This document shows, piece after piece, positions 34,178 through 55,285 of a DNA stretch of 64,000 bases (position 1 is its first letter; every line of letters begins with the position of its first letter). The DNA lies in NCBI GenBank assembly GCA_902774185.1, contig CACYHE010000010.1, forward strand, positions 1-64,000. Reading direction: 5' to 3'. The stretch comes from an uncultured Bacteroidales bacterium (GTDB lineage Bacteria > Bacteroidota > Bacteroidia > Bacteroidales > Paludibacteraceae). The notes beneath the pieces were generated by a model. That model was not told the origin of the DNA and ran no database searches. It was given only the letters and a program-made list of their open reading frames with translations. The position numbers and the translations under genes were made by a program.

Positions 34178-34217
34178 ATTGGAGATTGAAAATTGAAGAT
34201 TGAAGATTGAAAATTTA
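34178..34217. repeat. GATTGAA heptamer array upstream of dxs
   Basis: Five or so degenerate copies of a 7-bp unit (GATTGAA / AATTGAA) run up to the dxs start codon. The same unit occurs before ilvE (47230-47272), before the POT gene (48365-48388) and inside dapB and dxs. Confidence 0.75.
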
Positions 34218-36233
34218 ATGGAATATAAGTATATCAATAGGATTGATTCGCCGGCAGATTTGAAGAAGCTGAACGTGGAAGAACTGCCGGAGGTTTGTGC
34301 GGAGTTGCGGCATTTCATCATCGAGGCGCTGAGCACGAATCCGGGGCATCTGGGTTCGTCGTTAGGAACGATCGAGTTGACGGTTGCCTTACATTATGTA
34401 TTCGATACGCCGAACGACAAGTTGGTATGGGATGTGGGTCATCAGGCTTATGCCCACAAGATACTGACCGGCAGGCGGGACCGTTTTCACACGAATCGGC
34501 AATTCAAGGGTCTGTCCCCTTTCACGAACCCGATGGAGAGTGAATACGATGCGTTTATTGCAGGACATGCGAGTAATAGCATATCTGCGGCTTTAGGCCT
34601 TGATATTGCTGAAAAGTTTAGAGTTGAGAGTTCAGAGTTGAGAGAAGTTGAGAGTTCAGAGTTGAGAGAAGTTGAGAGTAGAAAGCCTCGCAATGTGGTA
34701 GCCATCATCGGCGATGGCGCAATGACGGGCGGTTTGGCTTTTGAGGGATTGAACAACACGTCGATGGACAAAAACAATCTGCTCATTGTGCTGAACGATA
34801 ACAACATGGCCATCGACCCGCTCAAAGGCGGTATCACGCAGTACTTGGTTGATCTGACGACGAGCGAAACCTATAACAAATGGCGTTGGCGGCTCTATCA
34901 ATTAGGGGTGAAGTTACACCTGATGAACGAAGAGAAACGGCAACGGATCTTACGGCGTAACAACAACTGGAAAGCGGCTCTGAGCAAACAAGCCAATAAT
35001 ATCTTCACGGGACTTAACATTCGTTATTTCGGTCCTACGGACGGTCACGACGTGATAAGTCTGGTTCGTATCCTGAGTGAGATCAAGAACCACCGCGGTC
35101 CCAAAGTGCTGCATATCATCACGAAAAAAGGCAAAGGTTACGCCCCTGCGGAAAACGACCAGACCGTTTGGCATGCGCCGGGTGAGTTTGACGTTGCCAC
35201 GGGGCAACGATCAGTTGAGAGTTCAAAGTTGAGAGTTGAGAGAAGTGGAGAAGTTAATAGTAGCGAGTTAATAGTTCCTCCCCTTTGGCAAGAGGTGTTT
35301 GGGGAGACGCTGTTGGAGTTGGCGAAGAAGAATGAGAAGATCGTAGGTATCACGCCGGCAATGCCGTCGGGTTGTTCGATGAGTATCATGCAAAAGGAGT
35401 TCCCTGACCGGGTGTTCGATGTGGGTATCGCCGAAGGACATGCCGTAACGTTCAGTGCCGGTTTGGCAAAAGCAGGTATGCTGCCTTACTGCAATGAATA
35501 TTCCACATTCCTCCAGCGTGCTTACGACAATATCGTACATGACGTGGCGCTGCAGAACCTGCATGTCGTGTTCTGTATCGACCGCGCCGGTATCGTAGGT
35601 AACGACGGTGCCACCCACCATGGTCTGTTGGATCTGGCATACTTGAGACCGATCCCGAACATGCAGATATGTGCCCCGCGTACGGCAGAGGACTTACGGC
35701 AGATGATGATACTGGCTGAGAAGTTGGATGGTCCTGTGGCTATACGGTATCCGCGAGGAAGGACACCTCAAGTTGAGAGTTTAGAGTTGAAAGTTGAGAG
35801 AAGTTCTCAAGAAGAAAGTTTAAAGTACGGGAAAGGCGTTAAGTTGCGGGACGGAAAGGATTTTGCGGTATTGACGATAGGGGCGATCGGGAACGTCGTC
35901 GCTGACGCGATTGAAGATTTAAGATTGAAGAATGAAGATTTGAGTATCGCGCATTACGACATGCGGTGGTTAAAACCGCTGGATGAAGAGATACTGCACG
36001 AAGTGGGTAAGAAATACAAGACCATCGTCACTGCCGAAGACGGAATGATCGCCGGTGGTTTGGGCAGTGCCGTCTTGGAATGGATGGCGGATCATGGTTA
36101 TAATCCACGTGTCATTCGTTTGGGTATCAACGATCAGTTTGTCGAACACGGCTCTACCAAAGAGCTTTACCATATGCTTAAATTAGATAAGGAGGGTTTA
36201 TGCGAATCGTTATTGCAGGTGCCGGAGAAGTAG
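34218..36233 (+). CDS. dxs: 1-deoxy-D-xylulose-5-phosphate synthase with four repeat-derived insertions (671 aa)
   Basis: A TPP enzyme condensing pyruvate and glyceraldehyde 3-phosphate, the first step of the MEP isoprenoid pathway. Recognisable are VWDVGHQAYAHKILTGRRD, the TPP motif GDGAMTGG with NDNNMAIDP, and DRAGIVGNDGATHHG. The start is ATG 34218 (MEYKYINRI) after the repeat array. The protein is about 50 residues longer than E. coli DXS. The extra length is four in-frame repeat arrays (34614-34685, 35211-35275, 35770-35825, 35909-35943), which encode runs such as VESSELRE between conserved blocks. Its 3' end overlaps trkA by 34 bp. Confidence 0.95.
   Translation: MEYKYINRIDSPADLKKLNVEELPEVCAELRHFIIEALSTNPGHLGSSLGTIELTVALHYVFDTPNDKLVWDVGHQAYAHKILTGRRDRFHTNRQFKGLSPFTNPMESEYDAFIAGHASNSISAALGLDIAEKFRVESSELREVESSELREVESRKPRNVVAIIGDGAMTGGLAFEGLNNTSMDKNNLLIVLNDNNMAIDPLKGGITQYLVDLTTSETYNKWRWRLYQLGVKLHLMNEEKRQRILRRNNNWKAALSKQANNIFTGLNIRYFGPTDGHDVISLVRILSEIKNHRGPKVLHIITKKGKGYAPAENDQTVWHAPGEFDVATGQRSVESSKLRVERSGEVNSSELIVPPLWQEVFGETLLELAKKNEKIVGITPAMPSGCSMSIMQKEFPDRVFDVGIAEGHAVTFSAGLAKAGMLPYCNEYSTFLQRAYDNIVHDVALQNLHVVFCIDRAGIVGNDGATHHGLLDLAYLRPIPNMQICAPRTAEDLRQMMILAEKLDGPVAIRYPRGRTPQVESLELKVERSSQEESLKYGKGVKLRDGKDFAVLTIGAIGNVVADAIEDLRLKNEDLSIAHYDMRWLKPLDEEILHEVGKKYKTIVTAEDGMIAGGLGSAVLEWMADHGYNPRVIRLGINDQFVEHGSTKELYHMLKLDKEGLCESLLQVPEK
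34614..34685 (+). repeat. AGTTGAGAG array inside dxs
   Basis: Degenerate units GAGTTGAGAGTTCA repeat in frame just before the TPP-binding motif and encode VESSELRE-type repeats. Three more arrays lie at 35211-35275, 35770-35825 and 35909-35943. Confidence 0.8.
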
Positions 36234-37534
36234 GAACACACTTGGCGAAATTGCTGAGTCGTGAAGATATGGAGATCAGTCTGTTGGACGAGCGTCAAGA
36301 CCGTTTAGGGGACTTGAGCGCCAACTACGACATGTTGACCAAGGTAGGCAATCCGACCTCTATTCATGACTTACGGGACGTAGGCGTGAACGGTTGTGAC
36401 CTGTTCATCAGCGTTACGCCGCATGAGACGGAGAACATGACAGCTTGTCTGATTGCCAACAGTCTGGGTGCCAAGCGTACCTTGGCGCGTATTGACAACT
36501 ATGAGTACCTGTTGCCGGAGAATAAGAAGTTCTTCGAGCAGATGGGTCTTAACCATCTGATCTATCCGGAGGTATTAGCCGCCAATGAGATCGAAGAGAG
36601 TCTGCGAACCAACTGGATGCGTTACCACCTGCACCTGGCACAAGGCGCGTTGGAGTTATGCGTGATCAAAGTGCGGACAGGTGCCAAAGTGATCGGTAAG
36701 ACTTTTGCCTCGGGTATCTATAATCATGGCAAATACCGTATCGTCGCCATCAAACGGGATCAGGACACGATTATCCCACGCGGTCAGGACACGGTGGAAG
36801 TAGGCGACATGGTGTATTGCATGTGTCCGAAAGAGAACATGGAGTTTATGCGGGAAGAGTTGGGCAAGTCCAAACGGGAGATCAAGAATGTGATCTTCTT
36901 AGGCGGCGGTCGTATTGCCCGTAAAGCGGCTACCGAACTGATGGACGAGATGAATATCAAGATCATTGAGACGGACCGAGAGTTATGCAATATACTGAGC
37001 GAGAAAGTGCCGAACGCATTGATCATCAATGACGATGGTACGGACATGTCCGTTCTCAAGGAAGAAGGTATCCAAGATGCGGACGCTTTTGTAGCCGTAA
37101 CGGATAGTAGCGAAGCGAATATCTTCGCCTGCCTGGCAGCCAAACGTTTTGGTGTGCGCAAGACCATTGCCGAGGTGGAGAACCTCGATTATATCCCGAT
37201 GGCGGAAGGATTGGATATCGGAACGGTACTTAACAAGAAGACCATTGCGGCCAGTTATATCTACCAGATGTTACTGGATGCCAGCGTACGCGGCGTACAT
37301 AACCTGACGAGTGCGGACGCCGAGATCGTGGAGTTCGAAGCCAAAGAAGGCAGTATGATCACCCGTCGCAAGGTCAAAGAGATGAATCTGCCGAGCGAAG
37401 CCAACATAGGCGGAATCGTTCGTGCAAACGAAGGTATATTAGTCAATGGTGACACGCAGATCATCCCCGGGGATTTGGTGGTATTGTTCTGCAAGAGTCA
37501 TGTGATACGTAACTTAGAGCGGTTCTTCAAATGA
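36200..37534 (+). CDS. trkA: Trk potassium uptake regulator TrkA (444 aa)
   Basis: Peripheral cytoplasmic NAD(H)-binding subunit that gates the TrkH potassium channel. There are two RCK units: Rossmann motif IAGAGEVGTHLA (about 5-16) followed by a TrkA-C region, and a second FLGGGRIARKAA (about 232-243) followed by a second TrkA-C (to 444). DERQDRL and ETDRELC contain the acidic nucleotide-binding ends. It overlaps dxs by 34 bp and trkH by 4 bp (ATGA), so dxs-trkA-trkH form one unit. Confidence 0.95.
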   Translation: MRIVIAGAGEVGTHLAKLLSREDMEISLLDERQDRLGDLSANYDMLTKVGNPTSIHDLRDVGVNGCDLFISVTPHETENMTACLIANSLGAKRTLARIDNYEYLLPENKKFFEQMGLNHLIYPEVLAANEIEESLRTNWMRYHLHLAQGALELCVIKVRTGAKVIGKTFASGIYNHGKYRIVAIKRDQDTIIPRGQDTVEVGDMVYCMCPKENMEFMREELGKSKREIKNVIFLGGGRIARKAATELMDEMNIKIIETDRELCNILSEKVPNALIINDDGTDMSVLKEEGIQDADAFVAVTDSSEANIFACLAAKRFGVRKTIAEVENLDYIPMAEGLDIGTVLNKKTIAASYIYQMLLDASVRGVHNLTSADAEIVEFEAKEGSMITRRKVKEMNLPSEANIGGIVRANEGILVNGDTQIIPGDLVVLFCKSHVIRNLERFFK

Positions 37535-38979
37535 CACGGACGTTTAACTGGCGCATAGTCTTCAAGACCATAGGCGTACTGACAACGCTGGAAGCACTAT
37601 TCATGTTAGTGCCCACTTTTGCTGCGTGGTGGTATCACGAACCCGATTTCGGTGCGTGGGTAGCAGCCAGTGCGATCACATGGATCAGCAGTTGGTGGAT
37701 GGTAGGCGCCGGTCGCAAAGCGGAGAGAAGGGTTGGTGAACGGGAAGGCTACGTGATCGTGGCAACCGTATGGCTTGTCTATTCGCTCTTCGGTATGTTA
37801 CCTTTCTGGTTAAGCGGCACCTTACCGAGTTTCACCGATGCCTGGTACGAGACGATGGCAGGATTCACCACCACCGGTTCGACCGTCTTCACCGACGTAG
37901 CGGCACAGACCCATTCGACACTTCTCTGGCGGTCCATGGCACAATGGATAGGGGGTATGGGTATCATCGTGCTGAGTGTCGCCATCCTGCCGATGTTCGG
38001 TTTAGGCGGCATGCAGCTCTATAGCGCCGAAGTGACGGGTGTCAGTTACGAGAAACTCAGTCCCCGTATCGCCGACACCGCCAAGCATATGTGGTTAACC
38101 TATATCGGTTTGACGATCGCGGAAGGCATCTTACTTTGGGTCTTCGGAATGGGTAAGTTCGACGCTATCTGTCATTCGATGGCGACTATCTCGACGGGTG
38201 GTTTTGCCACGCATAACGACAGTGTGATTGCGTACGGACCATCTATCCAATGGACGATAGCGGTCTTTATGTTGCTGTCCGGTATTAACTTCACGCAGTT
38301 GATCTACCTGTTCCGTGGCAAACCGGAACGGTTGGTGAAAGACGAAGAGACACGGTGGTATGTGAGTGCCTGTATCGTAGCCGGTATCGTGCTGGCGACA
38401 GGTCTGCTGATTCATACCCATATGCTGTCGAGTATCCGAATCGGTCTGTTCACCGCTATCGCGACCATCACCAGTACGGGATTTGTGGCTTCCGACTATA
38501 TGATCTGGCCTCCGGTACTATGGATGTTAGTCTTCTTCCTGATGTTCACCGGCGGTGCGTCGGGTTCGACATCAGGAGGTATGAAATGGGTTCGAATCGC
38601 TATCTTTGCCAAGTCGGCTTTAGCGGAGATCAAACGCCGTATTCACCCCAATGCCGTTATTCCGGTTCGTTTCAACGGCGTGACCATGCGGGAACAGACC
38701 ACCAGTAATATTGTGGCGTTTATGTTCTTCTACGTCATGATCATCGTACTGGCGTCGATCTGTTTCTGTGCTTGCGGAATCGGTTTTGACGAGTCGATCG
38801 GTATCGCGGTGTCGATGATCGGAAACGTAGGCGTGTCGATCGGTCAATGGGGTTCGAGTGGTTGCTATGCAGCCCTACCGGACGTTGCCAAATGGGTAGC
38901 TACGTTTGTGATGTTGATCGGTCGTCTGGAGATTTTCACCGTCTTACTGTTGTTCAGCAAATCGCTTTGGAGGAAATAA
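37531..38979 (+). CDS. trkH: Trk potassium transporter membrane subunit TrkH (482 aa)
   Basis: An integral membrane potassium channel subunit with the four-fold repeat typical of TrkH. Filter-region motifs include AGFTTTGSTVF, MATISTGGFATHN, TITSTGFVASDY and SMIGNVGVSIGQWG. FTGGASGSTSGGMKW is a further family signature. Its length fits the family. The ATG overlaps the trkA stop. Confidence 0.95.
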   Translation: MTRTFNWRIVFKTIGVLTTLEALFMLVPTFAAWWYHEPDFGAWVAASAITWISSWWMVGAGRKAERRVGEREGYVIVATVWLVYSLFGMLPFWLSGTLPSFTDAWYETMAGFTTTGSTVFTDVAAQTHSTLLWRSMAQWIGGMGIIVLSVAILPMFGLGGMQLYSAEVTGVSYEKLSPRIADTAKHMWLTYIGLTIAEGILLWVFGMGKFDAICHSMATISTGGFATHNDSVIAYGPSIQWTIAVFMLLSGINFTQLIYLFRGKPERLVKDEETRWYVSACIVAGIVLATGLLIHTHMLSSIRIGLFTAIATITSTGFVASDYMIWPPVLWMLVFFLMFTGGASGSTSGGMKWVRIAIFAKSALAEIKRRIHPNAVIPVRFNGVTMREQTTSNIVAFMFFYVMIIVLASICFCACGIGFDESIGIAVSMIGNVGVSIGQWGSSGCYAALPDVAKWVATFVMLIGRLEIFTVLLLFSKSLWRK

Positions 38980-39011
38980 AAGTGATTGGTGATATGTGAT
39001 TTGTAAATGTT

Positions 39012-40328
39012 ATGAGGCCGTATAAAGTTCTTCTGTTTTTTGCTTGCGTGTTAGCATGTCTGGCAGCCCTGTGTCTGGTGTTGCCGGGACGTGTTGCGTT
39101 CGCCGGAACGGAAGTACGGTGGCCGACTTTGGCGGAGGTAATGGGGAGCACAGAACACGGGACAGAGGGGATAGAGCTACTAGATACTCTAGATACTCTA
39201 GAGAGACTAGATACGCTAGAGACTCTAGAGACCGCCGATACCGTTGTACCGGAGAAACCAAAACCGGTTGTGCCGCCCAAAGTGGTGGTGGATTCGACGA
39301 TGGATAGTAGGATTTTCTTGCAGTCTTTCTATGCTTCTTTGTCGCAGACAGGCGAACGTCGTGTGCGGGTGTTGCATTACGGAGACAGTCAGATAGAAGA
39401 AGACCGAATGACCATGCAGATCCGTGAAACGCTGCAGAAACGGTACGGTGGGCAGGGGGTTGGTCTGATGCCCTTAGCCCAAACGATCCCTACCCGCACA
39501 ACACGTCAGGAGTTGCAGATGAACGGAAAGATCATCACACCGCAGAACGGTCCCAAACGATATTTGGTCTATGGACCCAAACGCGACCAGCGCAAAGACG
39601 GTTTGTACGGTGTGATGGGTCAGGTAGCTATCATGGCGGACAGCCTGGTAAGCGGTAGTGAGGATATCATAGCCGTTTGCAAACCGCAGATGGAGAGTGC
39701 CCATTATGAACGATGGAAGATCTTTGCGGACAGTACGATTTACTACGAGACGAACGGCGACACGGTGCACTTAAGCGGCAAAGGAGCGGTGTACGGTCTT
39801 TCGCAGGAGAGCGACACGGGTGTGATCGTGGATAACATCCCTATGCGAGGATGTCTCGGGTTGGTGTTCACGAAGATGGACAGCACGCAGTTGGCAACGT
39901 TCTACGCGGAGGAGAATGTGAAATTGATCATTATGCAGTTCGGCGGCAACGCGATACCGTTTAACGAACAACCGAGTACGATCAAAAGCATCGTGAAAGG
40001 ATTACGCGACCAAGTAAGGTACGTACAACGTTGTGCGCCCGAAGCCAGTATCCTGTTTATCGGTCCGAGTGACATGATACGAAAGAAAGACGGCGAATGG
40101 CAGACCTATCCGATGGTTCCGTACATGGATAAATTATTGCGTAAGATGGCGTTGGAAGAGAATATCGCCTATTTCAGTCTGTATAATTGGATGGGAGGAA
40201 GCGGCAGTATGCTGCGTTGGCAAGAAGCAGGTCTGGCAGGCAGTGACGGTGTGCATTTCTACCGTAACGGCGCCAAGAAAGCCGGTAACGCCGTAGTGGA
40301 GTGGATACTGGGAGAAATTAAAAATTAA
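39012..40328 (+). CDS. Membrane-anchored or secreted SGNH/GDSL hydrolase-like protein (438 aa)
   Basis: An N-terminal hydrophobic segment (about 5-30) is a signal or anchor. A repetitive stretch (LLDTLDTLERLDTLETLET, DNA 39176-39232, units CTAGATACT) and a proline linker precede the SGNH domain. Block I is HYGDSQIEED, block III MQFGGNAIP and block V GSDGVHFY, with Ser and Asp/His as the likely triad. It pairs with the downstream MBOAT gene, as in systems that O-acetylate cell-surface polysaccharide or peptidoglycan. The last residues EIKN are encoded by an AATTAAAA array. Confidence 0.8.
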   Translation: MRPYKVLLFFACVLACLAALCLVLPGRVAFAGTEVRWPTLAEVMGSTEHGTEGIELLDTLDTLERLDTLETLETADTVVPEKPKPVVPPKVVVDSTMDSRIFLQSFYASLSQTGERRVRVLHYGDSQIEEDRMTMQIRETLQKRYGGQGVGLMPLAQTIPTRTTRQELQMNGKIITPQNGPKRYLVYGPKRDQRKDGLYGVMGQVAIMADSLVSGSEDIIAVCKPQMESAHYERWKIFADSTIYYETNGDTVHLSGKGAVYGLSQESDTGVIVDNIPMRGCLGLVFTKMDSTQLATFYAEENVKLIIMQFGGNAIPFNEQPSTIKSIVKGLRDQVRYVQRCAPEASILFIGPSDMIRKKDGEWQTYPMVPYMDKLLRKMALEENIAYFSLYNWMGGSGSMLRWQEAGLAGSDGVHFYRNGAKKAGNAVVEWILGEIKN

Positions 40329-40345
40329 AAATTAAAAATTAAGAA

Positions 40346-42241
40346 TTGGATTTCCTATCCCACATATTTGCGTTTGATGCGGATAGTCCGTTGCTATTTA
40401 CTCAGTTCTATTTCTGGGGGTTCTTCGCGTTGGTGTTTGCGCTCTTTGCGCTGATACTAAGTGGTCAGCAATCAGCTATCAGTAATCAGAGAATGCATCT
40501 TCGCAATGTGTACTTGATGTTCGTCAGTTGGTTCTTTTACTACAAGACCAGCGGACTGTTCCTGCTTATTCTGCTTTTCGTCACGCTGAGCGACTGGCTC
40601 ATCGCGCGAGGAATTAAGAATTCAGAATTAAGGATTAAGAAATTTTGGCTTTGCTTGTCGATAATCATCGATTTGGGTTTATTGGCCTATTTCAAGTACG
40701 CCTATTTCTTCACCAACATGATCAATGACCTGTTCGGTACAGGTTTTCGGGTGTTTGATGTGTTTGCTTATGTCGGTAACGGTTTTGCCGAGACAGGTCG
40801 TTTCAGTGTCGATACGATCGTGTTGCCGGTAGGCATCTCGTTCTATATCTTCCAAGTGATCTCCTATACGGCCGATGTGTATCGGGGACGCATCCAACCG
40901 GTGAGGAACATTCTCGATTTTGGTTTCTACGTCAGTTTCTTTCCGCAGCTGGTAGCGGGACCTATCGTGCGCGCCGAAGAGTTCATTCCGCAGTTATACA
41001 AACCGTATCACTTAAGTCGCAGGGCATTCGGTATAGCGGTCTTCTGGATACTGAACGGTTTGGCGAAGAAGATCATCATGTCCGATTATCTGGCGGTGAA
41101 CCTTATTGACCGCGTCTTCGATAATCCGCTTTTGTTTTCGGGATTTGAGAACCTGTTTGCGCTGTTTGCGTACTCGCTGCAGGTTTATGCCGATTTCTCC
41201 GGTTACACGGATATCGCCATCGGTATCGCGATGCTGATGGGATTCTATCTGCCGATGAACTTCAACAGTCCGTACAAGAGTCAGAATCCGCAAGAGTTCT
41301 GGAGACGCTGGCATATGTCGTTGGGCAGATGGCTAAAGACCTATCTCTATATTCCGTTGGGAGGAAACCGCAAGATCGGGTTTGGCACCTATTTCTGGTT
41401 GTCGGTTATTGCCTTGGTCTCTGCCGCATTGACGGGTTGGTGGATATGGATACTGGTTCCGTTTGCCGTGTTTATGGTTGGAGTGTTTGTGTGGGACAAG
41501 ATTATAAGCCATCGGTCATCCGTAATCAGTAATCAGCAGAAACTTCTTTACTCGAACTTGAACTCGTTTATCACGCAGGTGATGGGTGGTTTATGGCATG
41601 GTGCGAGTTGGAACTTTATCATTTGGGGCGGTATCAACGGCATCGGAATGATCATCAATAAGATCTGGCGCGAGACGGGTTGGCATTTACGGTTCGGGGC
41701 GATGACTTTGCTGACCGCAGGTCTGTGCGTACTGGATTACACGACGAACCTTCCGGCATGGCGTCTGTTTGCCGTTTGGGCAGCTATCGTATGGATCGGT
41801 ACGGCAATACGGTATATCTATTTCTTATGCGAAGGTGCCGATAATAAGTTCACCAAGGCGATAGGTACGGCATGGGCGATACTCCAGACTTTTACATTTA
41901 TTACCTTCACGCGTCTGTTCTTCCGGTCCAGCAGCAATCTTGATCCGGCAAGCGCGAATGAGGTAGCATGGTCAACGGCGAAGAATATGGTCAACCAGAT
42001 AGGCGGGGCATGGAATAGTGCGATTATTCCGGATTTCCTTTGGGAGTACCGCTGGGTAGTAGCGATGTTCGTTGCCGGAATGATCATTCACTGGTTACCG
42101 ACGAACTGGAAAAGACGCTATCGGTTATGGTTCGCCAAGATGCCGCTCTGGTTGATGGTGATAGCCGTTTGTATCGCCATCGTGGTCATCTATCAGTTCG
42201 TCACAGCTGACATGCAACCGTTTATTTATTTCCAGTTTTAG
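40346..42241 (+). CDS. MBOAT-family membrane O-acyltransferase (631 aa)
   Basis: A multi-pass membrane protein with the MBOAT signature: FVSFFPQLVAGPIVRAEEF, NSPYKSQNPQEFWRRWHMSL, and the catalytic His in MGGLWHGASWNFIIWGG. It probably moves acetyl groups across the inner membrane for the adjacent SGNH protein. No ATG fits the N-terminus. TTG at 40346-40348, just after an AATTAAAA array, gives the expected start DFLSHIFAFDADSPLLF. Three in-frame arrays (40461-40490, 40611-40644, 41506-41540) insert residues such as QQSAISNQ in loops. Confidence 0.9.
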   Translation: MDFLSHIFAFDADSPLLFTQFYFWGFFALVFALFALILSGQQSAISNQRMHLRNVYLMFVSWFFYYKTSGLFLLILLFVTLSDWLIARGIKNSELRIKKFWLCLSIIIDLGLLAYFKYAYFFTNMINDLFGTGFRVFDVFAYVGNGFAETGRFSVDTIVLPVGISFYIFQVISYTADVYRGRIQPVRNILDFGFYVSFFPQLVAGPIVRAEEFIPQLYKPYHLSRRAFGIAVFWILNGLAKKIIMSDYLAVNLIDRVFDNPLLFSGFENLFALFAYSLQVYADFSGYTDIAIGIAMLMGFYLPMNFNSPYKSQNPQEFWRRWHMSLGRWLKTYLYIPLGGNRKIGFGTYFWLSVIALVSAALTGWWIWILVPFAVFMVGVFVWDKIISHRSSVISNQQKLLYSNLNSFITQVMGGLWHGASWNFIIWGGINGIGMIINKIWRETGWHLRFGAMTLLTAGLCVLDYTTNLPAWRLFAVWAAIVWIGTAIRYIYFLCEGADNKFTKAIGTAWAILQTFTFITFTRLFFRSSSNLDPASANEVAWSTAKNMVNQIGGAWNSAIIPDFLWEYRWVVAMFVAGMIIHWLPTNWKRRYRLWFAKMPLWLMVIAVCIAIVVIYQFVTADMQPFIYFQF

Positions 42242-42242
42242 A

Positions 42243-42288
42243 CCGCCCTACGGGCTGACAGAATACAGAGTACAGAATACAGACCTAT
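42243..42288. repeat. ACAGAATAC array upstream of coaE
   Basis: About three copies of an 8-bp unit (ACAGAATA / ACAGAGTA) lie between the MBOAT stop and the coaE start. It is part of the scattered short-array class. Confidence 0.65.
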
Positions 42289-42289
42289 A

Positions 42290-42886: not shown

Positions 42887-42892
42887 AATAAA

Positions 42893-43074: not shown

Positions 43075-43647
43075 ATGGACGAATTAGTACAAATTCAACA
43101 ACAAATCTATTTTGTAAATGGAGAACGTGTGATGTTTGACGATGATCTCGCCAAACTATACGGTGTTGAAACGGCGCAACTCAAACGAGCCGTAAAACGT
43201 AATATAGAACGTTTCCCATCAGATTTTATGTTTGTTGTCAAAAACGCGGACATACAGCATTTAAAGTCTCAGTTAGGCACCGTCAAACGTGGAGGTAGCC
43301 GCTATGACGCATTCGCTTTTACTGAATTGGGCGTGGCTATGCTTAGTTCTGTCCTAAATTCACAGACAGCAATAGATATTAATATCAACATTATGCGCGC
43401 TTTTGTAGAACTGCGCCGTCTGACACAACTCGCGACTACCAGTTATCAAACATTACAACGCGAGATTGATGAGGTAAAAGATTATATTGAAGATATTTTG
43501 AGAGATCAGAATGATATAAATGAAGAACACGGCGCACAACTAGAAGCAATCAGCATCGCTTTATCTGAATTACAAACTAAAAAACGAAAAGAGAAGCCCA
43601 TAAGATCTATTGGTTTTAATGCACCTCAATACAAAGAGGATAAGTAA
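43075..43647 (+). CDS. ORF6N-domain DNA-binding protein (190 aa)
   Basis: An N-terminal ORF6N domain (about 5-95: IYFVNGERVMFDDDLAKLYGVETAQLKRAVKRN to FTELGVAMLSSVLNS in separate blocks) is followed by a C-terminal coiled-coil-like helix (about 110-170) and a basic end. ORF6N proteins are relatives of phage Bro/KilA-N DNA-binding proteins and are widespread in Bacteroidota accessory regions; their roles are mostly unknown. Two palindromic direct repeats precede the gene. It sits in a 1.4-kb islet between duplicated coaE ends, so horizontal acquisition is likely. Confidence 0.85.
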   Translation: MDELVQIQQQIYFVNGERVMFDDDLAKLYGVETAQLKRAVKRNIERFPSDFMFVVKNADIQHLKSQLGTVKRGGSRYDAFAFTELGVAMLSSVLNSQTAIDININIMRAFVELRRLTQLATTSYQTLQREIDEVKDYIEDILRDQNDINEEHGAQLEAISIALSELQTKKRKEKPIRSIGFNAPQYKEDK

Positions 43648-44501: not shown

Positions 44502-45236
44502 ATGAAAATAGCACTTATCGGATACGGGAAGATGGGGCATATGATTGAGGAAATCGCCCTGAGTAGAGGCCATGACGTTGTTTGCGCAATAGACGCAAAC
44601 AACGATTTGAAGATTGAAGATTTAAGATTGAAGATTTTTTCTCCGGAAGAAGGTTTTCAAAGTGAGGCTTTTCGGAGTGCAGATGTGGCGATTGAGTTCA
44701 CGACACCGGGCACTGCTGAAACGAATGTGCGCAAAGCCTGGGAACAAGGTGTGCCGGTGATCTCCGGTTCCACGGGGTGGAAACCGGAAGAGTTGAGTGT
44801 TGAGAGTTTAGAGTTGAGAGAAGTTAATAGTAAAAAGTTGATAGTTGACAAAAAGACGGGCAAAACGATGCTCGTTTGGAGCAGTAATTTCTCGGTGGGG
44901 GTGAATATTTTCTTTGAACTGAATAAGTGGCTGGCGGAAAAGATGGTAAACCAACCGCAGTACATGCCGTCTATTACGGAGATACACCATATTCATAAAT
45001 TGGACAAGCCAAGCGGGACGGCAAAGACGCTGAGTAATGATATAATGAGTGCGGTTTCACCGCTCAATGATGCAAATGGTGTACCGATTGAGAGTATTCG
45101 AGAAGGGGAAGTGCCGGGAACGCACGAGGTGAAATGGGATAGCGAAGAAGATACGATTATTATCACGCATATTGCGAAAGGAAGACGGGGTTTTGCATTA
45201 GGAGCAGTACTGGCTGCGGAATCGTTAAAACAGTAA
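44502..45236 (+). CDS. dapB: 4-hydroxy-tetrahydrodipicolinate reductase (244 aa)
   Basis: NAD(P)H-dependent step of lysine/meso-diaminopimelate synthesis. The Rossmann motif IGYGKMGHMIEE (about 5-16), IEFTTPG, ISGSTGW and the signature EIHHIHKLDKPSGTA with the catalytic His-Lys region are visible. Two in-frame arrays are inserted: 44602-44639 (GATTGAA type, after IDANN) and 44789-44849 (AGTTGAGAG type, after GWKPE), encoding LKIEDLRLKI and SVESLELREVNSKKL. It heads the run dapB-lepB-WbqC, an order common in Bacteroidales. Confidence 0.94.
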   Translation: MKIALIGYGKMGHMIEEIALSRGHDVVCAIDANNDLKIEDLRLKIFSPEEGFQSEAFRSADVAIEFTTPGTAETNVRKAWEQGVPVISGSTGWKPEELSVESLELREVNSKKLIVDKKTGKTMLVWSSNFSVGVNIFFELNKWLAEKMVNQPQYMPSITEIHHIHKLDKPSGTAKTLSNDIMSAVSPLNDANGVPIESIREGEVPGTHEVKWDSEEDTIIITHIAKGRRGFALGAVLAAESLKQ

Positions 45237-45334: not shown

Positions 45335-46735
45335 ATGACAATGAAGACTTTTCAAGATAGAATAAAAGAAGTGCCGCGTGGAGGATGGATTCGCGCGGGA
45401 GTATGGGGCGCGCTCTATGTAGCGTTCGTTATTTGGGTCGCATGGGGCGACTGGAAGAGTCTGGGTTGGCTGGTATTGTTACCGCTGATCGTGGACGCTT
45501 TCACAACGAAGTATATCAACTATAGTTGGTGGCGGAAATACAAAAACACGAAGCCGGCTCTGTACACCCTGTGCAGTTGGATTGACGCGATTGTATTTGC
45601 GTTGGTAGCGGTTTATTTCATTAACTTGTACATCTTCCAAAACTACCAGATTCCGAGTTCCAGTTTGGAGAAGAGTTTGCTGGTTGGTGACTTTCTGTAC
45701 GTCGATAAGATGGCGTACGGAGCGCGTGTTCCGATGACGCCATTATCGATGCCGTTGATGCAACACACCGCTCCGAAATGGTTAGGCGGCGGTAAGAGTT
45801 ACATCGATAAACCGCATTGGGCGTACAAGCGCCTGAAGGGTTGGACGAGTCCGAAGAAGGGCGATATCGTGGTGTTTAACTTCCCGGCAGGAGATACGGT
45901 TCTGGCAAAAGTGGAAAGTCCGGACTACTACACGGTTCGTTATAAGTTAGAGCAACAGGGAATGATGGAGATGAGTATTCCTACGGATCGCGGATTGGTT
46001 CAGATCACGAAGAAAGATTTGAAGGATGTGAAGGTACGACCGGTGGATCGGCGTGAGAACTACGTGAAACGCTGCGTAGGCGAGCCGGGAGATTCGTTGA
46101 AAATCACGGATAATGTAATTTTCACGAAGAGCACAGAACCCAGAACACAGAACACAGACTGGATTCAAGAGCCGGAACGGGAAGGCGTGCAATTGAATTA
46201 TCTGGTTTATACCGACGGCCATATCTTAACCGCAAAATACATGGATAAGTTAGGTATCAGTATGGCAGACCGGATTCAGAACCGCAAAGGAGATGTGTAT
46301 CATTTCCCGTTAACGAAGGAGGCCAAAGAGACCCTGGAAAAGAATCCGCATGTGATTGCCGTTGAGGTCGAGCAAGACCTGGAAGGCGAGGTTTATCCGT
46401 TGGGTCATAACGAGTGGACGAGAGATAACTACGGTCCGATTTATATTCCGAAGAAAGGCGATAAGATCTTGATCACGGAGGAGAACTACCGGATCTACAA
46501 GCGTATCGCAGATGCCTATGAGTTCAAGTCCATGAAGATAGGCGAGGAGTATGCATTCGAGATGGATTATTACTGGATGATGGGCGATAACCGTCATAAC
46601 AGTGCGGATAGTCGATACTGGGGTTTTGTACCTGAAGATCATATCGTCGGACGACCTGTGTTCGTTTGGTTGAGTATTGACAAAGACCATCATAAGATCC
46701 GCTGGAACCGAATCGGCAAACGAGCTAAACAATGA
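45335..46735 (+). CDS. lepB: Signal peptidase I (466 aa)
   Basis: Inner-membrane peptidase removing signal peptides. Two or three N-terminal membrane segments (about 18-100) precede the catalytic domain with nucleophile Ser110 in IPSSSLEKSL and general base Lys245 in NYVKRCVGEPGDSL. The YWMMGDNRHNSADSRYWGFV box lies near the end. The large size is usual for Bacteroidota signal peptidases. A repeat array GAACACA (46130-46159) inserts the residues TEPRTQNT after VIFTKS in a loop following the Lys box. A second ATG (MKTF, 45341) is possible. The stop overlaps the next gene (ATGA). Confidence 0.94.
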   Translation: MTMKTFQDRIKEVPRGGWIRAGVWGALYVAFVIWVAWGDWKSLGWLVLLPLIVDAFTTKYINYSWWRKYKNTKPALYTLCSWIDAIVFALVAVYFINLYIFQNYQIPSSSLEKSLLVGDFLYVDKMAYGARVPMTPLSMPLMQHTAPKWLGGGKSYIDKPHWAYKRLKGWTSPKKGDIVVFNFPAGDTVLAKVESPDYYTVRYKLEQQGMMEMSIPTDRGLVQITKKDLKDVKVRPVDRRENYVKRCVGEPGDSLKITDNVIFTKSTEPRTQNTDWIQEPEREGVQLNYLVYTDGHILTAKYMDKLGISMADRIQNRKGDVYHFPLTKEAKETLEKNPHVIAVEVEQDLEGEVYPLGHNEWTRDNYGPIYIPKKGDKILITEENYRIYKRIADAYEFKSMKIGEEYAFEMDYYWMMGDNRHNSADSRYWGFVPEDHIVGRPVFVWLSIDKDHHKIRWNRIGKRAKQ

Positions 46736-47272: not shown

Positions 47273-47273
47273 G

Positions 47274-48323: not shown

Positions 48324-48328
48324 GGTTT

Positions 48329-48346
48329 CCCCGATTAACGGGGACA
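48329..48346. repeat. Hairpin after ilvE, CCCCG-ATTAA-CGGGG
   Basis: A 5-bp G/C stem just after the ilvE stop, without a U-run, in sequence resembling a dispersed palindromic repeat (ACCGTCAGGTGCACC follows). It is a weak terminator candidate. A GATTGAA array follows at 48365-48388. Confidence 0.4.
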
Positions 48347-48403
48347 CCGTCAGGTGCACCATCATTGAAGATTGAAGATTGAAGATTTAAAATTTTATAG
48401 TTT

Positions 48404-49933: not shown

Positions 49934-49940
49934 GTAAATT

Positions 49941-50519: not shown

Positions 50520-51215
50520 ATGCTTTATATTGTTCCGACACCGGTAGGCAATCTGCAAGACATGACGTTCCGCGCCATTGAGGTGCTGAAGTCTGTGGAT
50601 TTGATTTTGGCGGAAGATACCCGCACAAGCGGAGTGTTGATGCAGCATTTCGATATCCACACGCCGCTCAAGAGTCATCATAAGTTCAACGAACATGAGA
50701 CCTCCGCGGATATTGTAGAGCGTCTGAAAGCCGGAGCGAATATCGCACTTATCTCCGATGCCGGTACACCGGCTATCAGCGACCCCGGATTCTTCTTGGT
50801 TAGAGCAGCGGCAGAAGCGGATATTGAGATTCAATGTCTTCCCGGAGCAACTGCTTTTGTACCGGCACTGGTCGATAGCGGTTTGCCGAACAACCACTTC
50901 TATTTTGAAGGTTTTTTGCCGCAAAAGAAAGGTAGGCAGACACGCTTGCAATACTTGGCTGCTTTGGATCAGACCTTCATTATCTACGAGTCTCCGTTCC
51001 GGTTGGTGAAGACGCTGGAGCAGTTGGCACAAGTATGCGGAGAGGAACGCAAAGCGAGTGTGAGTCGGGAGATATCCAAGAAGTTCGAAGACACGCAACG
51101 TGGAACGCTGGCAGAGTTGATTAGTCATTACAAACAAATTCCACCGAAAGGGGAAATAGTGGTCTGCGTGGCAGGAGTCGAAAGTCAAAAGTCGAAAGTC
51201 GAAAGCGATGAATGA
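50520..51215 (+). CDS. rsmI: 16S rRNA (cytidine-1402-2'-O)-methyltransferase (231 aa)
   Basis: SAM-dependent tetrapyrrole-methylase-fold enzyme. YIVPTPVGNLQDMTFRAIEVL (start), AEDTRTSGVL and ISDAGTPAISDPGF are diagnostic, as is the SREISKKFEDTQRGTL block. It methylates the ribose of C1402 in 16S rRNA. The last residues (ESQKSKVESDE) are encoded by an AAGTCGAAAGTC array (51178-51206), so the C-terminus is repeat-derived. It overlaps the following flippase gene by 8 bp. Confidence 0.94.
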   Translation: MLYIVPTPVGNLQDMTFRAIEVLKSVDLILAEDTRTSGVLMQHFDIHTPLKSHHKFNEHETSADIVERLKAGANIALISDAGTPAISDPGFFLVRAAAEADIEIQCLPGATAFVPALVDSGLPNNHFYFEGFLPQKKGRQTRLQYLAALDQTFIIYESPFRLVKTLEQLAQVCGEERKASVSREISKKFEDTQRGTLAELISHYKQIPPKGEIVVCVAGVESQKSKVESDE

Positions 51216-52656
51216 GATGAAATCCTTGGCGAAGGACACCGCCATCTATGGGTTAAGTTCGATCATAGGTAAGTTTTTGAACTATCTGTTGGTTCCGCTA
51301 TATACTTACGTATTGGAGCGTGAAGCGGATTATGGTATCGTGACGAACCTGTACGCTTGGACCGCTTTATTGTTGGTATTGCTGACCTACGGTATGGAGA
51401 CGGGTTTCTTCCGTTTCGCCAACCGCGAAGACTACGATGCCAAGAGCGTGTATAAGACGGCATACCTGACTTTATTCAGTACGAGTGCGCTCTTTGCGCT
51501 ATTGGTGATTGTTTTCCAACATCCTCTGGCTACCGGTTTGGGTTATCCGGACCATTCGGAGTTTGTAGCGATGATGTTCGCAACAGTGGCTATCGATGCT
51601 TTCGCTTGTATCCCGTTCGCTTACCTACGTTACCGGAAACGACCGATCCTATTTGCGGCACTAAAACTATTGTTTGTCGTACTGAATATCGGCTTTAATG
51701 TATTGTTCCTGGTTGTGCTGGGTAAGAACGATGTGTTCTACGTGTTCTTAAGCAATATCTTAGCCACCACCATCCAGACACTTTGCCTGTTGCCGTTCAC
51801 CTTACCCAAAGGCGGTCGGTTCTCCATGCCTACTTTGGGTGCGATGTTACGGTACTCCTTACCGCTGTTGGTATTGGGCGTAGCAGGAATCATGAACCAG
51901 ACGCTGGATCGTATCTTATTCCCTTATTTATATACCGGCGAAGACGCACAGACGCAGTTAGGTATCTACGGGGCGTGCTTTAAGGTAGCGATGGTGATGA
52001 TGATGTTCACCCAGGCCTTCAGGTATGCGTACGAACCGTTTGTGTTTGCGAAACACAAAGACCGACAGAGTGTAGAGGCTTACGCAGATGCGATGAAATA
52101 CTATGTCATCTTCTCGTATCTGATCTTGTTAGGCGTGATCTTCTATCTGGACATCTTCAAGTTCATCATCTCCCGCAACTATTGGGAGGGTTTGCTCATC
52201 GTGCCGGTAGTGCTATGGACTTATGTGTTCCAAGGCATCTATTTTAATCTCAGTTTCTGGTATAAGTTGACGGACGAGACCAAGTGGGGAGCTTATTTCT
52301 CGCTGATCGGTCTGGTGATTACCTTACTGATACAGGTTATCGGAGTGCCGATTATCGGTTATTGGGCAAGTTGCGGTAGTAGTTTGGTTTGTTACTTCGT
52401 GATTATGCTGCTTTCGTATTTTATCGGGCAGAAGAAGGCACCGATACCATACGACTTGAAACGGATAGGACTTTATACCATCCTGACCCTCGTCTTACTG
52501 GCTGTATATTATACATGTCGGTTCGCACTGGGTCTGCATATGCGGCATTTAATGCTGATCGGTACGGCATTGATCGGAATCTATCTGCTTGTGCTCACGC
52601 GCAAAGACTTCCCTTTATCTGCCATTTTACATCGTAAAATAAATCGTACATCGTAA
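51208..52656 (+). CDS. Polysaccharide flippase, MATE/PST superfamily (482 aa)
   Basis: About 12-14 membrane segments with the Wzx/PST start (SLAKDTAIYGLSSIIGKFLNY) and a typical ETGFFRFANRE loop. Such proteins flip lipid-linked oligosaccharides across the inner membrane. A second, different flippase lies at 55286, so the region may supply more than one surface glycan. The C-terminal KINRTS is encoded in a CGTAAAT-type array that continues to the ribE start. Confidence 0.85.
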   Translation: MNEMKSLAKDTAIYGLSSIIGKFLNYLLVPLYTYVLEREADYGIVTNLYAWTALLLVLLTYGMETGFFRFANREDYDAKSVYKTAYLTLFSTSALFALLVIVFQHPLATGLGYPDHSEFVAMMFATVAIDAFACIPFAYLRYRKRPILFAALKLLFVVLNIGFNVLFLVVLGKNDVFYVFLSNILATTIQTLCLLPFTLPKGGRFSMPTLGAMLRYSLPLLVLGVAGIMNQTLDRILFPYLYTGEDAQTQLGIYGACFKVAMVMMMFTQAFRYAYEPFVFAKHKDRQSVEAYADAMKYYVIFSYLILLGVIFYLDIFKFIISRNYWEGLLIVPVVLWTYVFQGIYFNLSFWYKLTDETKWGAYFSLIGLVITLLIQVIGVPIIGYWASCGSSLVCYFVIMLLSYFIGQKKAPIPYDLKRIGLYTILTLVLLAVYYTCRFALGLHMRHLMLIGTALIGIYLLVLTRKDFPLSAILHRKINRTS

Positions 52657-52679
52657 ATTTGTAAATCGTACATCATATT

Positions 52680-53300
52680 ATGTTCTCAGGAATCGTAGAA
52701 ACAATGGCTCAGGTCGTTAAGATCGAGACCGAGCAGACCAATAAACATTTCACCCTTCGCAACCCGTTTGGCGAAGCACTGAGTATCGATCAGTCGATCG
52801 CGCATAACGGCGTGTGCCTGACGGTGGTGAAGATGGAAGGAGATTTATATACTGTCACCGCTATGCAAGAGACCTTGCGTCTGACCAATTTGGATGGTCT
52901 GAAGGTAGGCGATTTCGTCAATGTAGAGCGCTCGATGCTGATGGGCGGTCGGCTGGACGGACATATCGTGCAGGGTCATGTGGATCAGAAAGCGGTGTGT
53001 ATCGAAGCCAAAGAGACCGACGGCAGTTGGTATTACCGCTTCGCCTATGATTCGTCACGCGAGATGATTGAACGCGGTTATTTCTGCGTAGATAAGGGTT
53101 CGGTAACCATCAACGGTGTGAGCCTGACCGTTTGTGAACCGGATATAAAGGAGGATAAGGGCTATGTGTCCGTTTGTATCATCCCTTATACACACGAGAA
53201 TACGAACTTCAAATATATCGAAGTGGGCACAGTGGTGAATATCGAGTTTGATATATTGGGTAAGTATCTCAGCCGGTATGCGGCAATACTTAAAAGTTGA
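52680..53300 (+). CDS. ribE: Riboflavin synthase alpha chain (206 aa)
   Basis: Catalyses dismutation of 6,7-dimethyl-8-ribityllumazine to riboflavin. The duplicated lumazine-binding barrels are visible: MFSGIVETMAQV with NGVCLTVV (about 1-90) and GRLDGHIVQGHVDQ with INGVSLTV (about 95-200). The length is normal. An AAAGTTG array follows the stop codon (53295-53330), before the FKBP gene. Confidence 0.95.
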   Translation: MFSGIVETMAQVVKIETEQTNKHFTLRNPFGEALSIDQSIAHNGVCLTVVKMEGDLYTVTAMQETLRLTNLDGLKVGDFVNVERSMLMGGRLDGHIVQGHVDQKAVCIEAKETDGSWYYRFAYDSSREMIERGYFCVDKGSVTINGVSLTVCEPDIKEDKGYVSVCIIPYTHENTNFKYIEVGTVVNIEFDILGKYLSRYAAILKS

Positions 53301-53330
53301 AAGTTGAAAGTTGAAAGTTTAAAGTTTTAA
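53296..53330. repeat. GAAAGTT heptamer array downstream of ribE
   Basis: Five near-identical 7-bp units (GAAAGTT / AAAAGTT) span the end of ribE and the gap to the FKBP gene. It is one of the cleanest heptamer arrays in the window. Confidence 0.8.
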
Positions 53331-53340
53331 TATTTATATT

Positions 53341-53925
53341 ATGGACAAAATCAGTTATGCATTAGGCCTTTCTATGGGTCAAAATTTAATGGGTAGCGGT
53401 GTGGAGAAACTGAACTATCAGGATCTGGCGCTGGGTATCGAAGATGTACTCAGTCACAACCAACCCAAAATCAGTTATCAAGAGGCACAGCAGGTGTTGA
53501 ATACCTTCTTCCAAGAGTTGGAGGCGAAGGTTGCAGGTGCTGCTAAGGCTGACGGAGAGAAATTCTTGGCAGAGAACGCCAAACGTGAAGGCGTCAAGGT
53601 TACGGCTAGCGGTTTGCAGTACGAGATACTGGAGCCTTCGTTGGGTCAGAAACCGAAAGCAACTGACACCGTACGTGTGCATTATGAGGGAACACTGATT
53701 GACGGTACCGTCTTCGACAGCAGTTATAAACGCGGTGAGTCGATCACCTTCCCGTTGAACGGTGTAATCAAAGGTTGGACCGAAGGTCTGCAGTTAATGT
53801 CGATCGGTTCGAAGTATAAATTCTTCATCCCGTACCAACTGGCTTACGGTGAGCGCGGCGCAGGTGCCTCTATCCCACCCTATGCAGCATTGATCTTCAC
53901 GGTAGAATTATTAGGAATTGAATAA
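53341..53925 (+). CDS. FKBP-type peptidyl-prolyl isomerase (194 aa)
   Basis: An N-terminal FkpA-like dimerisation helix region (about 1-80, [14 protein letters not shown]) precedes the FKBP catalytic domain (about 90-194, [39 protein letters not shown]). No signal peptide is present, so it should be cytoplasmic. Its catalytic part is about 80 percent identical by eye to that of the next gene, pointing to a recent duplication. An ATTACAA array separates the two. Confidence 0.9.
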
Positions 53926-53954
53926 CAAAAAAAATAACAAATTACAAATTACAA

Positions 53955-55247
53955 ATGAGAAAGATAACTATCTTTTTGTTGGCTGCAATTGCGTTGATCT
54001 CTTGCGGCAACAGTTACAAAGCACAAGACGTGAAGTTAAAGAGCGAGAATGACTCAGTGAACTTCGCATTAGGCGTACTCAACGGTCTGCAATTACGCAC
54101 GTATGTACTGCGTGGGGATACCAGCGATGAAACGATCGCTGAGTTCATCGATGCTTTGGAGAACGCTTACCTCAACAAGGAGGAAGAAGAACAACGGAGT
54201 GAGATCGCAGAACTGGGTCATAACTTAGGTGTTTCCGCAAAGATCTTTGAGAAGGACGGTCTGCGTGGAGTAGACGCATGGACGCTGAACGAGGAGGCAT
54301 TTTTCCAAGGTGTCATCAATGGTCTGTATGAAGATACGACGGTAATGAGTTTGGAAGAGGCTTCTGAAGTAATGCGCAATGCTCGTACGCTTGAGAAAGA
54401 CGAGAAAGCCGAAGTGGTCTATGCCAAATGTCCGAAGAAAGCAAAGACTATTACGCTTGAGAGCCGGCTTGATTCCATTAATTATGCGTTCGGTTTGACC
54501 TTCAGTACGCAGATCAGAGCGTATATCATCGCTAATGCAGAAGAGGCAGAAGAGGGCTTCGATGAGTTTGCAGAGTATGTGAACAAAGGTTTGAAGTCTG
54601 ACGTACGCAATCCGCAACTCATAGAGGCAGGTAAGAATATTGGTAAAGCCATTCGCGAGCAAGAGCCTATCGGTCTGATGGGTGTTGCAGGTGTTGAGAC
54701 CAATTATGATTTGATCAAACAAGGTTTCATCAACGGTCTGTATAATCGCACGACCCAATTTGATGTGATGTCTGCAGATATGTATATCCGTAATACGTTC
54801 ATGCGTATCGAAGCGGAGAATGCAGCTGCAGAAGCCGCTAAGGCGGAAGAGTTCGGAGCCAAAACCAAAGAAGAGGGCGAAGCTTTCTTGGAAGAAAATG
54901 CCAAACGTGAGGAAGTGAAGGTGACGGAAAGCGGTTTGCAGTACGAAGTACTGGAAGCCGGTAATGGTCCGAAGCCGACGGCTGAATCGTTTGTGAAGGT
55001 GCACTATGAAGGTACCCTCATCGATGGTACGGTCTTCGACAGCAGTTACCGACGCGGTGAACCGGCTGAGTTCCCGTTGAACGGTGTAATCAAAGGTTGG
55101 ACGGAAGGTTTGCAGTTAATGCCGAAGGGTGCGAAATACAAATTCTTCATCCCGTACCAATTGGCTTACGGTGAGCGTGGCGCAGGCGCGTCCATTCCTC
55201 CGTACGCTGCTCTGATCTTCACGGTCGAACTGCTGGACTTCAAATAA
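53955..55247 (+). CDS. Lipoprotein FKBP-type isomerase with duplicated N-terminal domain (430 aa)
   Basis: The lipoprotein signal has Cys17 (AAIALISC). Two FkpA-like N-terminal helical units occur in tandem (about 30-150 starting [10 protein letters not shown], and 170-300 starting [10 protein letters not shown]). An A/E-rich helix and a C-terminal FKBP domain (about 325-430) nearly the same as in the upstream gene follow. It would act as a chaperone or prolyl isomerase in the periplasm or at the outer membrane. The doubled N-terminal unit is larger than in usual FkpA proteins (about 270 residues). Confidence 0.88.
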
Positions 55248-55285
55248 ATGAATAAATCGTAAATCGTCCAATCGTAAATCATAAG

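What the first reader, a model, noticed from the sequence alone, without database searches (positions are those of the whole stretch)
34178..55283. Genome-wide degenerate heptamer-like arrays, between and inside genes
More than twenty short arrays with 7-10 bp units occur: GATTGAA, AGTTGAGA, AATTAAAA, CAGTAATCAG, GAACACA, ACAGAATA, GAAAGTT, ATTACAA, CGTAAATC, GTGATTT, CTGGTCGA. Units differ between sites but length, degeneracy and A/T-rich style are similar. They sit in most intergenic gaps of the 34-57 kb region and also in frame inside conserved enzymes. Replication slippage alone does not explain so many unrelated seeds; a spreading or template-driven process is possible.
Basis: seen in the sequence. 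Interest (0 to 1): 0.75.

Follow-up and report, generated by a model that had tools for sequence, protein, structure and literature searches.

The report
Seven-base repeat arrays across gut-bacterium genomes
In a group of gut bacteria, short blocks of about four repeated seven-letter DNA words sit between genes and inside conserved enzymes, and many seem to come from a stock of words that differs from species to species rather than from the neighbouring DNA, which hints at an unknown copying process.

Summary
The arrays are real. In 464 kb of this genome (window plus 20 stretches) 126 period-7 arrays were found against 0.0 in shuffled DNA. Relatives are uncultured Paludibacteraceae of gut and rumen. 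One genome from each of two other genera of the family had none in 388 kb, apart from a poly-A run.

New here: (1) lengths jump at 30 bp, four units plus two bases, in genes and gaps alike; (2) starts and ends prefer one position in the unit; (3) 20 of 1172 possible unit classes hold half of 570 arrays, and sharing is higher within a genome than between species; (4) orthologous sites often lack the array or carry another unit, and 59 of 65 empty alleles hold no exact copy of the unit.

Against pure import: near-copies (6 of 7 bases) in empty alleles exceed chance, 28 of 65 against 16. Mixed-unit phrases failed a direction control. No enzyme was found. My best reading is non-local copying of blocks plus local slippage and removal of in-frame stops. 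Heptamer repeats are known: a new variant of a known kind.

The parts
34178..34215 (+). ATTGAAG/GATTGAA array in the dxs leader, just before the likely ATG at 34218
34218..36233 (+). dxs (1-deoxy-D-xylulose-5-phosphate synthase); four variable loops hold arrays. The ORF list starts it at TTG 34200; ATG 34218 is my choice
34615..34679 (+). AGTTGAG array in dxs loop 1; a 24-bp block (three heptamers plus AGA) repeats 2.4 times from 34622
35213..35242 (+). 30-bp AGTTGAG block in dxs loop 2
35771..35800 (+). 30-bp AGTTGAG block in dxs loop 3
35909..35940 (+). GATTGAA array in dxs loop 4; the second unit is GATTTAA, which avoids an in-frame TGA
40315..40347 (+). AAATTAA array at the GDSL/MBOAT gene junction; at what looks like the same junction L037 and L039 carry this unit and L058 carries AAAGGTG (window matched by sequence resemblance only)
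40465..40489 (+). weak, degenerate TCAGCAA array inside the MBOAT gene
   Evidence: score 36
40611..40641 (+). GAATTAA array inside the MBOAT gene
41510..41536 (+). CATCAGT/ATCAGTA array inside the MBOAT gene
42258..42283 (+). ACAGAAT array in the gap before coaE
44604..44637 (+). GATTGAA array inside dapB
44789..44820 (+). AGTTGAG array inside dapB
46128..46158 (+). AGAACAC array inside the S26 signal-peptidase gene; net +30 nt against a homologue in L062
47231..47267 (+). GATTGAA array at the end of the WbqC-like gene and in the gap after it
48364..48387 (+). GATTGAA array in the gap before the POT transporter gene
51176..51205 (+). 30-bp AGTCGAA block near the end of the tetrapyrrole-methylase-family gene; the same 30-mer occurs at three other places of the sampled 864 kb (L121, L172, L173)
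52640..52674 (+). TAAATCG array at the end of the MatE-like gene and in the gap before the lumazine-binding-domain gene
53293..53326 (+). AAAGTTG array in the gap before the first FKBP gene
53932..53956 (+). AAATTAC array between the two FKBP genes
55253..55284 (+). TAAATCG array in the gap before the polysaccharide-biosynthesis gene
2005..2044 (+). ATTTGTG array at a gene end; same phenomenon outside the stated range
15106..15136 (+). ATTGGTG array in a gap; same phenomenon outside the stated range

Best explanation
The arrays are the product of a process in this Paludibacteraceae genus that places blocks of about 30 bp (four heptamers, starting and ending on the same 2-4 bases, most often AG or AAT) into gaps and tolerant enzyme loops. 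Shown: the period, the length step, the preferred ends, the partly genome-specific stock of units, and the site-by-site turnover. Inferred: many blocks are copied from arrays elsewhere in the same genome, most simply by a nascent strand that switches template, anchored by 2-4 matching bases, copies about four units and returns; sites that already resemble a unit are favoured. After that, unit-wise slippage (changes of 7 bp) and point mutation vary the array, and selection keeps versions without an in-frame stop. The enzyme is unknown.
For: Period lock: 126 lag-7 arrays in 464 kb against 0.0 in shuffles. Length: 29 bp 18 arrays, 30 bp 75; one shuffle of each sequence gives 0 at 30-31 bp; the step stays at 30 for thresholds 8-13 (penalty -1) and 8, 9, 11 (penalty -2) and is seen in genes (7 to 48) and gaps (6 to 16). 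Ends: 49% in the modal start phase and 50% in the modal end phase of their class (321 of 749 arrays, the 20 classes with at least 8) against a uniform null mean of 28%, maximum 33%; AG at the ends in 32 of 64 arrays of length 7n+2 with identical ends, against 14.7% of dinucleotides in arrays of that length type. Units: Simpson 0.0282 against 0.0010 (flank units, max 0.0022) and 0.0038 (letters shuffled, max 0.0065), 200 trials each. Genome-specific: pairs in the same locus share a class in 61 of 1150 against 745 of 53704 between loci, permuted maximum 2.7%; in this genome pairs on different stretches 186 of 7338 against 546 of 41832 to other species, ratio 1.94, permuted maximum 1.59. Sharing by distance in one locus: 28/236 at 0.5-2 kb, 11/298 at 2-5 kb, 22/616 beyond. 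Turnover in 18 pairs of related species: 124 mapped comparisons of 84 arrays, 45 filled in both, 68 empty, 11 between; of the 45, 21 keep the unit class, 4 differ by one base, 20 by two to four. 6 of 65 empty alleles hold the exact unit; 0 of 10 polarised gains. One 34-bp stretch with mixed units lies in two dxs loops of L069.
Against: A unit with at most one mismatch is in 28 of 65 empty alleles, against a swapped null of 16 (max 24, 0 of 300 reach it), and the exact unit in 6 against 1.2 (max 5): local seeding, or remnants of lost arrays, contributes. In one search, 4 of 10 gains have a 6-of-7 match. Identical order of variant units at distant sites exceeds unit permutation (24-mers: 68 pairs against mean 29, max 49), but a control that keeps clustering and flips direction nearly removes it (36 forward against 23 reversed pairs, 24 of 500 flips reach 36; 6 against 6 in gaps). 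So copying of mixed phrases is not established. Flanks are not shared beyond neighbouring arrays. Net insertion in genes is broad, not a clean 30 nt. In dxs loop 2 many species extend a conserved GGCGAACGG with 7-spaced GG. No polymerase or transposase was linked. Phase and class counts treat orthologous arrays of related species as separate.
Confidence: 0.4

Rival explanations
1. Plain replication slippage with a 7-nt preference (Mrazek's idea, as reported in PMC4679880 and PMC4692102), started from local near-repeats spaced 7 nt apart and boosted in this genus by a polymerase or repair defect. Shared units then reflect mutational bias.
For: Near-copies of the unit in empty alleles exceed chance: 28 of 65 against 16, max 24. 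Lengths of 7n+2 or more fit a microhomology-seeded start (lengths 7n and 7n+1: 83 and 61 of 749, against 110-138 for each other remainder). Pairs filled in both species differ by 0 (27 of 45) or by 7 (6 of 45). The L086/L089 pair differs by one unit. GG-anchored units in dxs loop 2 extend conserved codons.
Against: Unit repertoire 27-fold more concentrated than flank units predict, partly genome-specific; exact unit absent from 59 of 65 empty alleles. In dxs, presumably essential, single 7-bp steps would shift the frame (inference).
Confidence: 0.32
2. Convergent selection: arrays are binding sites or translation-leader elements with a 7-bp pitch, kept where useful.
For: Gaps are enriched (188 arrays in 0.145 Mb against 356 in 1.808 Mb of coding DNA); many lie just before start codons; a regulatory role was proposed for TAACTGA repeats upstream of starts (PMC4679880).
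Against: The same blocks sit inside variable loops of enzymes; units differ at the same site by two or more bases in 20 of 45 filled comparisons; arrays are absent from many orthologous sites.
Confidence: 0.12
3. An enzyme with intrinsic sequence taste synthesises heptamer tracts without a DNA donor.
For: Fixed pitch, length step, preferred ends, limited vocabulary.
Against: The vocabulary differs between species of one genus and sharing is highest between near sites; RVT_1 has no match in this assembly.
Confidence: 0.11
4. Assembly artefact of metagenomes.
For: The loci compared in this genus are, by their titles, metagenome-assembled or uncultured.
Against: An orthologous array is identical in assemblies of different projects (L039 and L058), and arrays in dxs keep the frame open.
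Confidence: 0.02

Closest known systems
Heptanucleotide long simple sequence repeats (Mrazek 2007; known to me only as summarised in PMC4679880 section 3 and passages of PMC4692102)
   Same: Heptamers are the commonest long repeats in most genomes; slippage over a 7-nt polymerase contact was proposed.
   Different: Here many degenerate unit families share one genome, enter conserved genes although 7 is not a multiple of 3, and recur between sites.
GGGNATC heptamer repeats of Xanthomonas and Nostoc (PMC4692102, passages read)
   Same: Period 7, preference for four units, over-represented in non-coding DNA, same gaps with varied sequence between related species.
   Different: Their four-unit preference was tied to G-quadruplexes. 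Here 8 of 570 arrays have four GGG or CCC tracts, and arrays below 40% GC show the rise at 30-33 bp too, so quadruplexes are not the reason in this genus.
TAACTGA repeats of Beggiatoaceae, Cyanobacteria and some Bacteroidetes (PMC4679880; abstract, passages and introduction read)
   Same: Heptamer direct repeats before start codons; sporadic distribution; mixed with other heptamers in some hosts; Paludibacter propionicigenes has two sets.
   Different: One dominant unit in the main host there; the TAACTGA class has 0 of 570 arrays here.
Tandem repeats of constant size but variable sequence (20-21 or 52 nt; Bacillus, PMC8161180, abstract and passages read)
   Same: Constant size with different sequences in one genome.
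   Different: Much longer units; the 52-nt ones are said not to encode amino acid repeats.
Borg tandem repeats (PMC9879509, passages read)
   Same: Many arrays in gaps and genes, fast turnover, A-rich.
   Different: Borg arrays are generally perfect, unique to each locus and inferred to arise from local sequence; in genes their unit length is divisible by three. Here units are degenerate, shared between loci and 7 bp long.

Membership tests
Heptanucleotide simple sequence repeats | Period 7 exceeds other periods and chance | tested here: met
   126 against 0.0 shuffled; other lags from 4 to 30 give 0-19 except 14 (84) and 21 (37)
Heptanucleotide simple sequence repeats | Enriched outside genes | tested here: met
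   188 in 0.145 Mb non-coding against 356 in 1.808 Mb coding, with crude gene calls; 59 arrays at gene edges left out of 603
Heptanucleotide simple sequence repeats | Arise by slippage on the local sequence | tested here: inconclusive
   7-bp length changes and near-units in 28 of 65 empty alleles (null 16) speak for it; no exact unit in 59 of 65 or 10 of 10 polarised gains speaks against
GGGNATC quadruplex repeats | Four G-tracts explain the four-unit preference | tested here: not met
   8 of 570 arrays have four GGG or CCC tracts; the GGGAATC class has 2 of 570
TAACTGA repeats | Unit TAACTGA | tested here: not met
   0 of 570 arrays
Borg-type tandem repeats | Unit unique to each locus, perfect, divisible by 3 in genes | tested here: not met
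   Classes recur, 22% of 511 arrays have identical whole units, unit is 7 bp inside genes
Transposon or REP-like mobile element | Shared ends or flanks beyond the repeat, linked transposase | tested here: not met
   Of 42 flank alignment rows all but about 6 are the same site or neighbouring array sequence, 8 rows in the random control; Y1_Tnp, the one transposase family sought, has no match in this assembly. Preferred ends are the one feature in favour
Phase-variation repeats | Copy number switches expression within a strain | not testable with these tools
   one genome per species held

The most novel reading that the evidence does not exclude
A dedicated, still unidentified copying system of this genus writes 30-bp heptamer blocks (four units plus a shared AG or AAT end) from donor arrays into new sites, so that short repeats behave as a transposase-free mobile element that edits loops of essential enzymes.
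Probability: 0.22. Interest if true: 0.86.

Novelty: new variant of a known kind. Interest (0 to 1): 0.63.

Why it matters
Why heptamers are the favoured long repeat in many bacteria is an old question; the explanation I met in the papers read is polymerase slippage. This genus offers on the order of 600 arrays per genome (extrapolated) and dozens of related species, so gains, losses and unit changes can be read site by site. The 30-bp length step, the preferred ends and the genome-specific vocabulary are measurable constraints that a slippage model must meet or fail. If blocks are copied between sites, short repeats would be a way to spread DNA and remodel enzyme loops without a transposase.

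Tried and rejected
Shared flanks as ends of a mobile element: 42 alignment rows among 252 flanks, all but about 6 (my count) from the same site or neighbouring array sequence; 8 rows among random pieces. Reverse transcriptase link: RVT_1 in 10 of 41 genus genomes, not in this one. Y-family polymerase: in 33 of 41, not compared formally with array density. Y1 transposase: 16 of 41 (12 over the cut-off), not in this one. Clean 30-nt insertion in genes: 201 genes with arrays, 180 with homologues, 275 arrays scored; net insertion is broad, 265 above 0, but I took the largest value over up to 25 homologues, which favours positive values (that script stopped with an error while saving, after printing). 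Phrase copying: positive against unit permutation (in the genic subset 3 and 2 of 200 permutations reach it for 24- and 27-mers, and in the gaps 1 of 200 for 16-mers), largely lost against the direction-flip control; I do not claim it. Frame preservation as the cause of the four-unit mode: rejected because gaps show it too. Rfam: no match at gathering score in the window. Same vocabulary in cyanobacteria: 7 lag-7 arrays in 200 kb of one Trichormus plasmid, one class (ACTCCTG) also in the genus list, 0 in 50 kb each of two other plasmids: too few to judge. The first dxs translation misread loci on the minus strand and was redone.

It favours local seeding in part, so I lowered the best explanation from 0.45 to 0.40 and the novel case from 0.25 to 0.22, and raised slippage from 0.27 to 0.32.

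Limits: gene calls in my scripts are crude longest-ORF calls (the window array at 51176 was put in an antisense ORF, although Pfam supports the plus-strand gene). The seed test looks at the same strand only. Comparisons use both directions of each pair and some species in several pairs, so sites filled in both count twice (124 comparisons, 84 arrays; 65 empty-allele tests, 50 arrays). Gains number 10. No strains of one species are held, so within-species change was not tested.
Full report
What was checked. The window is contig 10, bases 1-64000, of a 2.19 Mb, 35-contig assembly. Its dxs protein finds relatives of which the best 80 loci were kept; their titles name mostly Paludibacteraceae or Bacteroidales, many from gut or rumen samples. 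TRF and a lag scan confirm the arrays. In 464 kb of the same genome there are 126 period-7 arrays against 0.0 in shuffles; of the other lags from 4 to 30 only 14 and 21 give more than 19. Weaker excesses at periods 8 to 11 exist.

Who has them. Across 80 dxs loci of relatives the density is 30.1 per 100 kb in 44 loci near the window by dxs identity and 12.5 in the other 36. One genome from each of two other genera of the family has 0 arrays in 388 kb, leaving aside one poly-A run, and stretches of 16 genomes of other families (one all N) have 2 in 195 kb. The pattern (AAAGTCG)3 with up to 2 mismatches has 40 overlapping hits in this genome, and 7 of 197 other genomes of the order have any. The same call warns against calling heptamer arrays unique to this genus: the backward control pattern, itself a heptamer repeat, has 21 hits in G158 and 10 in G164 of other families.

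Anatomy. Array lengths jump at 30 bp (29: 18, 30: 75, 31: 63) for every threshold tried, with no array at 30 or 31 in one shuffle of each sequence. The step is present in genes (356 arrays) and gaps (188 arrays); 59 arrays at gene edges were left out. For the 20 classes with at least 8 members (321 of 749 arrays) about half of the arrays start, and half end, at the class's favourite position; a uniform null gives 28%, at most 33%. AG is the shared end in 32 of 64 arrays of length 7n+2 with identical ends. In one relative a 2.3-kb region shows successive blocks, several of them 30 bp, separated by single bases (L047; my reading of the sequence).

Inside genes. The variable loops of dxs hold arrays in many species, with different units at the same loop. 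In the window several in-gene units lose TGA where it would be in frame (TTGA to TTCA or TTTA; sequence). Net insertion against the emptiest homologue is positive for 265 of 275 scored arrays, by a method that favours positive values, and broad in size, so arrays replace as well as add sequence.

Units. Of 1172 possible classes 157 are used, and 20 hold 287 of 570 arrays. The Simpson index of this genome's units is 0.028, against 0.0010 for units drawn from flanks and 0.0038 for letter-shuffled units. Pairs within one locus share a class in 5.3% against 1.4% between loci of different species. In this genome pairs on different stretches share a class 1.94 times as often as this genome does with other species; permuted maximum 1.59. 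Sharing is highest at 0.5-2 kb (28 of 236) and stays near 3.6% beyond.

Turnover. In 18 pairs of related species (79.6 to 95.9% identity) 124 comparisons of 84 arrays could be mapped: 45 filled in both, 68 empty in the other, 11 in between. Of the 45, 21 keep the unit class, 4 differ by one base and 20 by two to four; 27 have equal length and 6 differ by 7. Of 65 empty alleles tested (50 arrays), 6 hold the exact unit (null mean 1.2, max 5) and 28 hold it with at most one mismatch (null mean 16, max 24). With an outgroup, 10 gains could be polarised; none has the exact unit in an empty allele, 4 have a 6-of-7 match. One site changed its units at constant length (L068 16179 against L074).

What it most likely is. 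Local slippage accounts for 7-bp steps and for sites with a near-unit. It does not account well for a shared, partly genome-specific vocabulary or for the many arrays at sites without a seed. I favour non-local copying of blocks, most simply by template switching anchored by 2-4 bases, at 0.40. The strongest results against me are once clustering of variants is kept, the order of mixed units is not clearly shared in one direction; near-units in empty alleles exceed chance.

Comparison with the literature. Heptamer excess and the slippage idea are known (Mrazek 2007, seen only through PMC4679880 and PMC4692102). The four-unit preference was reported for GGGNATC and tied to quadruplexes (PMC4692102, passages); the same preference here in AT-rich arrays shows that quadruplexes are not needed. 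Borg repeats are inferred to be local and unique per locus (PMC9879509, passages), unlike what is seen here. I found no report of these arrays in Paludibacteraceae or of non-local units; searches, open-licence papers only.

Noticed in passing
dxs loops of L009, L010, L015, L019, L042, L044, L047, L050, L054, L085: The same loops that take heptamer arrays also take other short repeats in other species: palindromes such as CTCCCCGACCCTCTCCCAAGGAGAGGGAG and repeats such as GACCGGCTTCGCCTGACAGA, so several repeat types share insertion sites.
   Followed up: partly
dxs loop 2 of L047 and L083; window about 35194-35209 (also L012): Snap-back palindromes lie directly before arrays (GTCACTACCGGCGAGCGCCGTAGTGAC in L047 and L083; GTTGCCACGGGGCAAC in the window), as if the strand had folded back and copied itself.
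   Followed up: no
L128 8561 and L136 17781 (own genome): An identical 45-bp period-11 array (TATTGGGTGATT...) occurs at two sampled places of this genome; periods 8 to 11 show a smaller excess.
   Followed up: no
L161 5447, 6367, 15610; L173 14600 and L174 18459, 18994: Sites with a shared flank, perhaps paralogous genes, carry different or varied heptamer arrays at the same position, a possible record of array change after duplication.
   Followed up: no
G158 and G164 (other families of the order): The backward control pattern, itself a heptamer repeat, has 21 and 10 hits there, so other heptamer families may be abundant elsewhere in the order.
   Followed up: no
window 43075-43647: An ORF6N-domain gene sits among housekeeping genes in an array-poor part of the region.
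   Followed up: no
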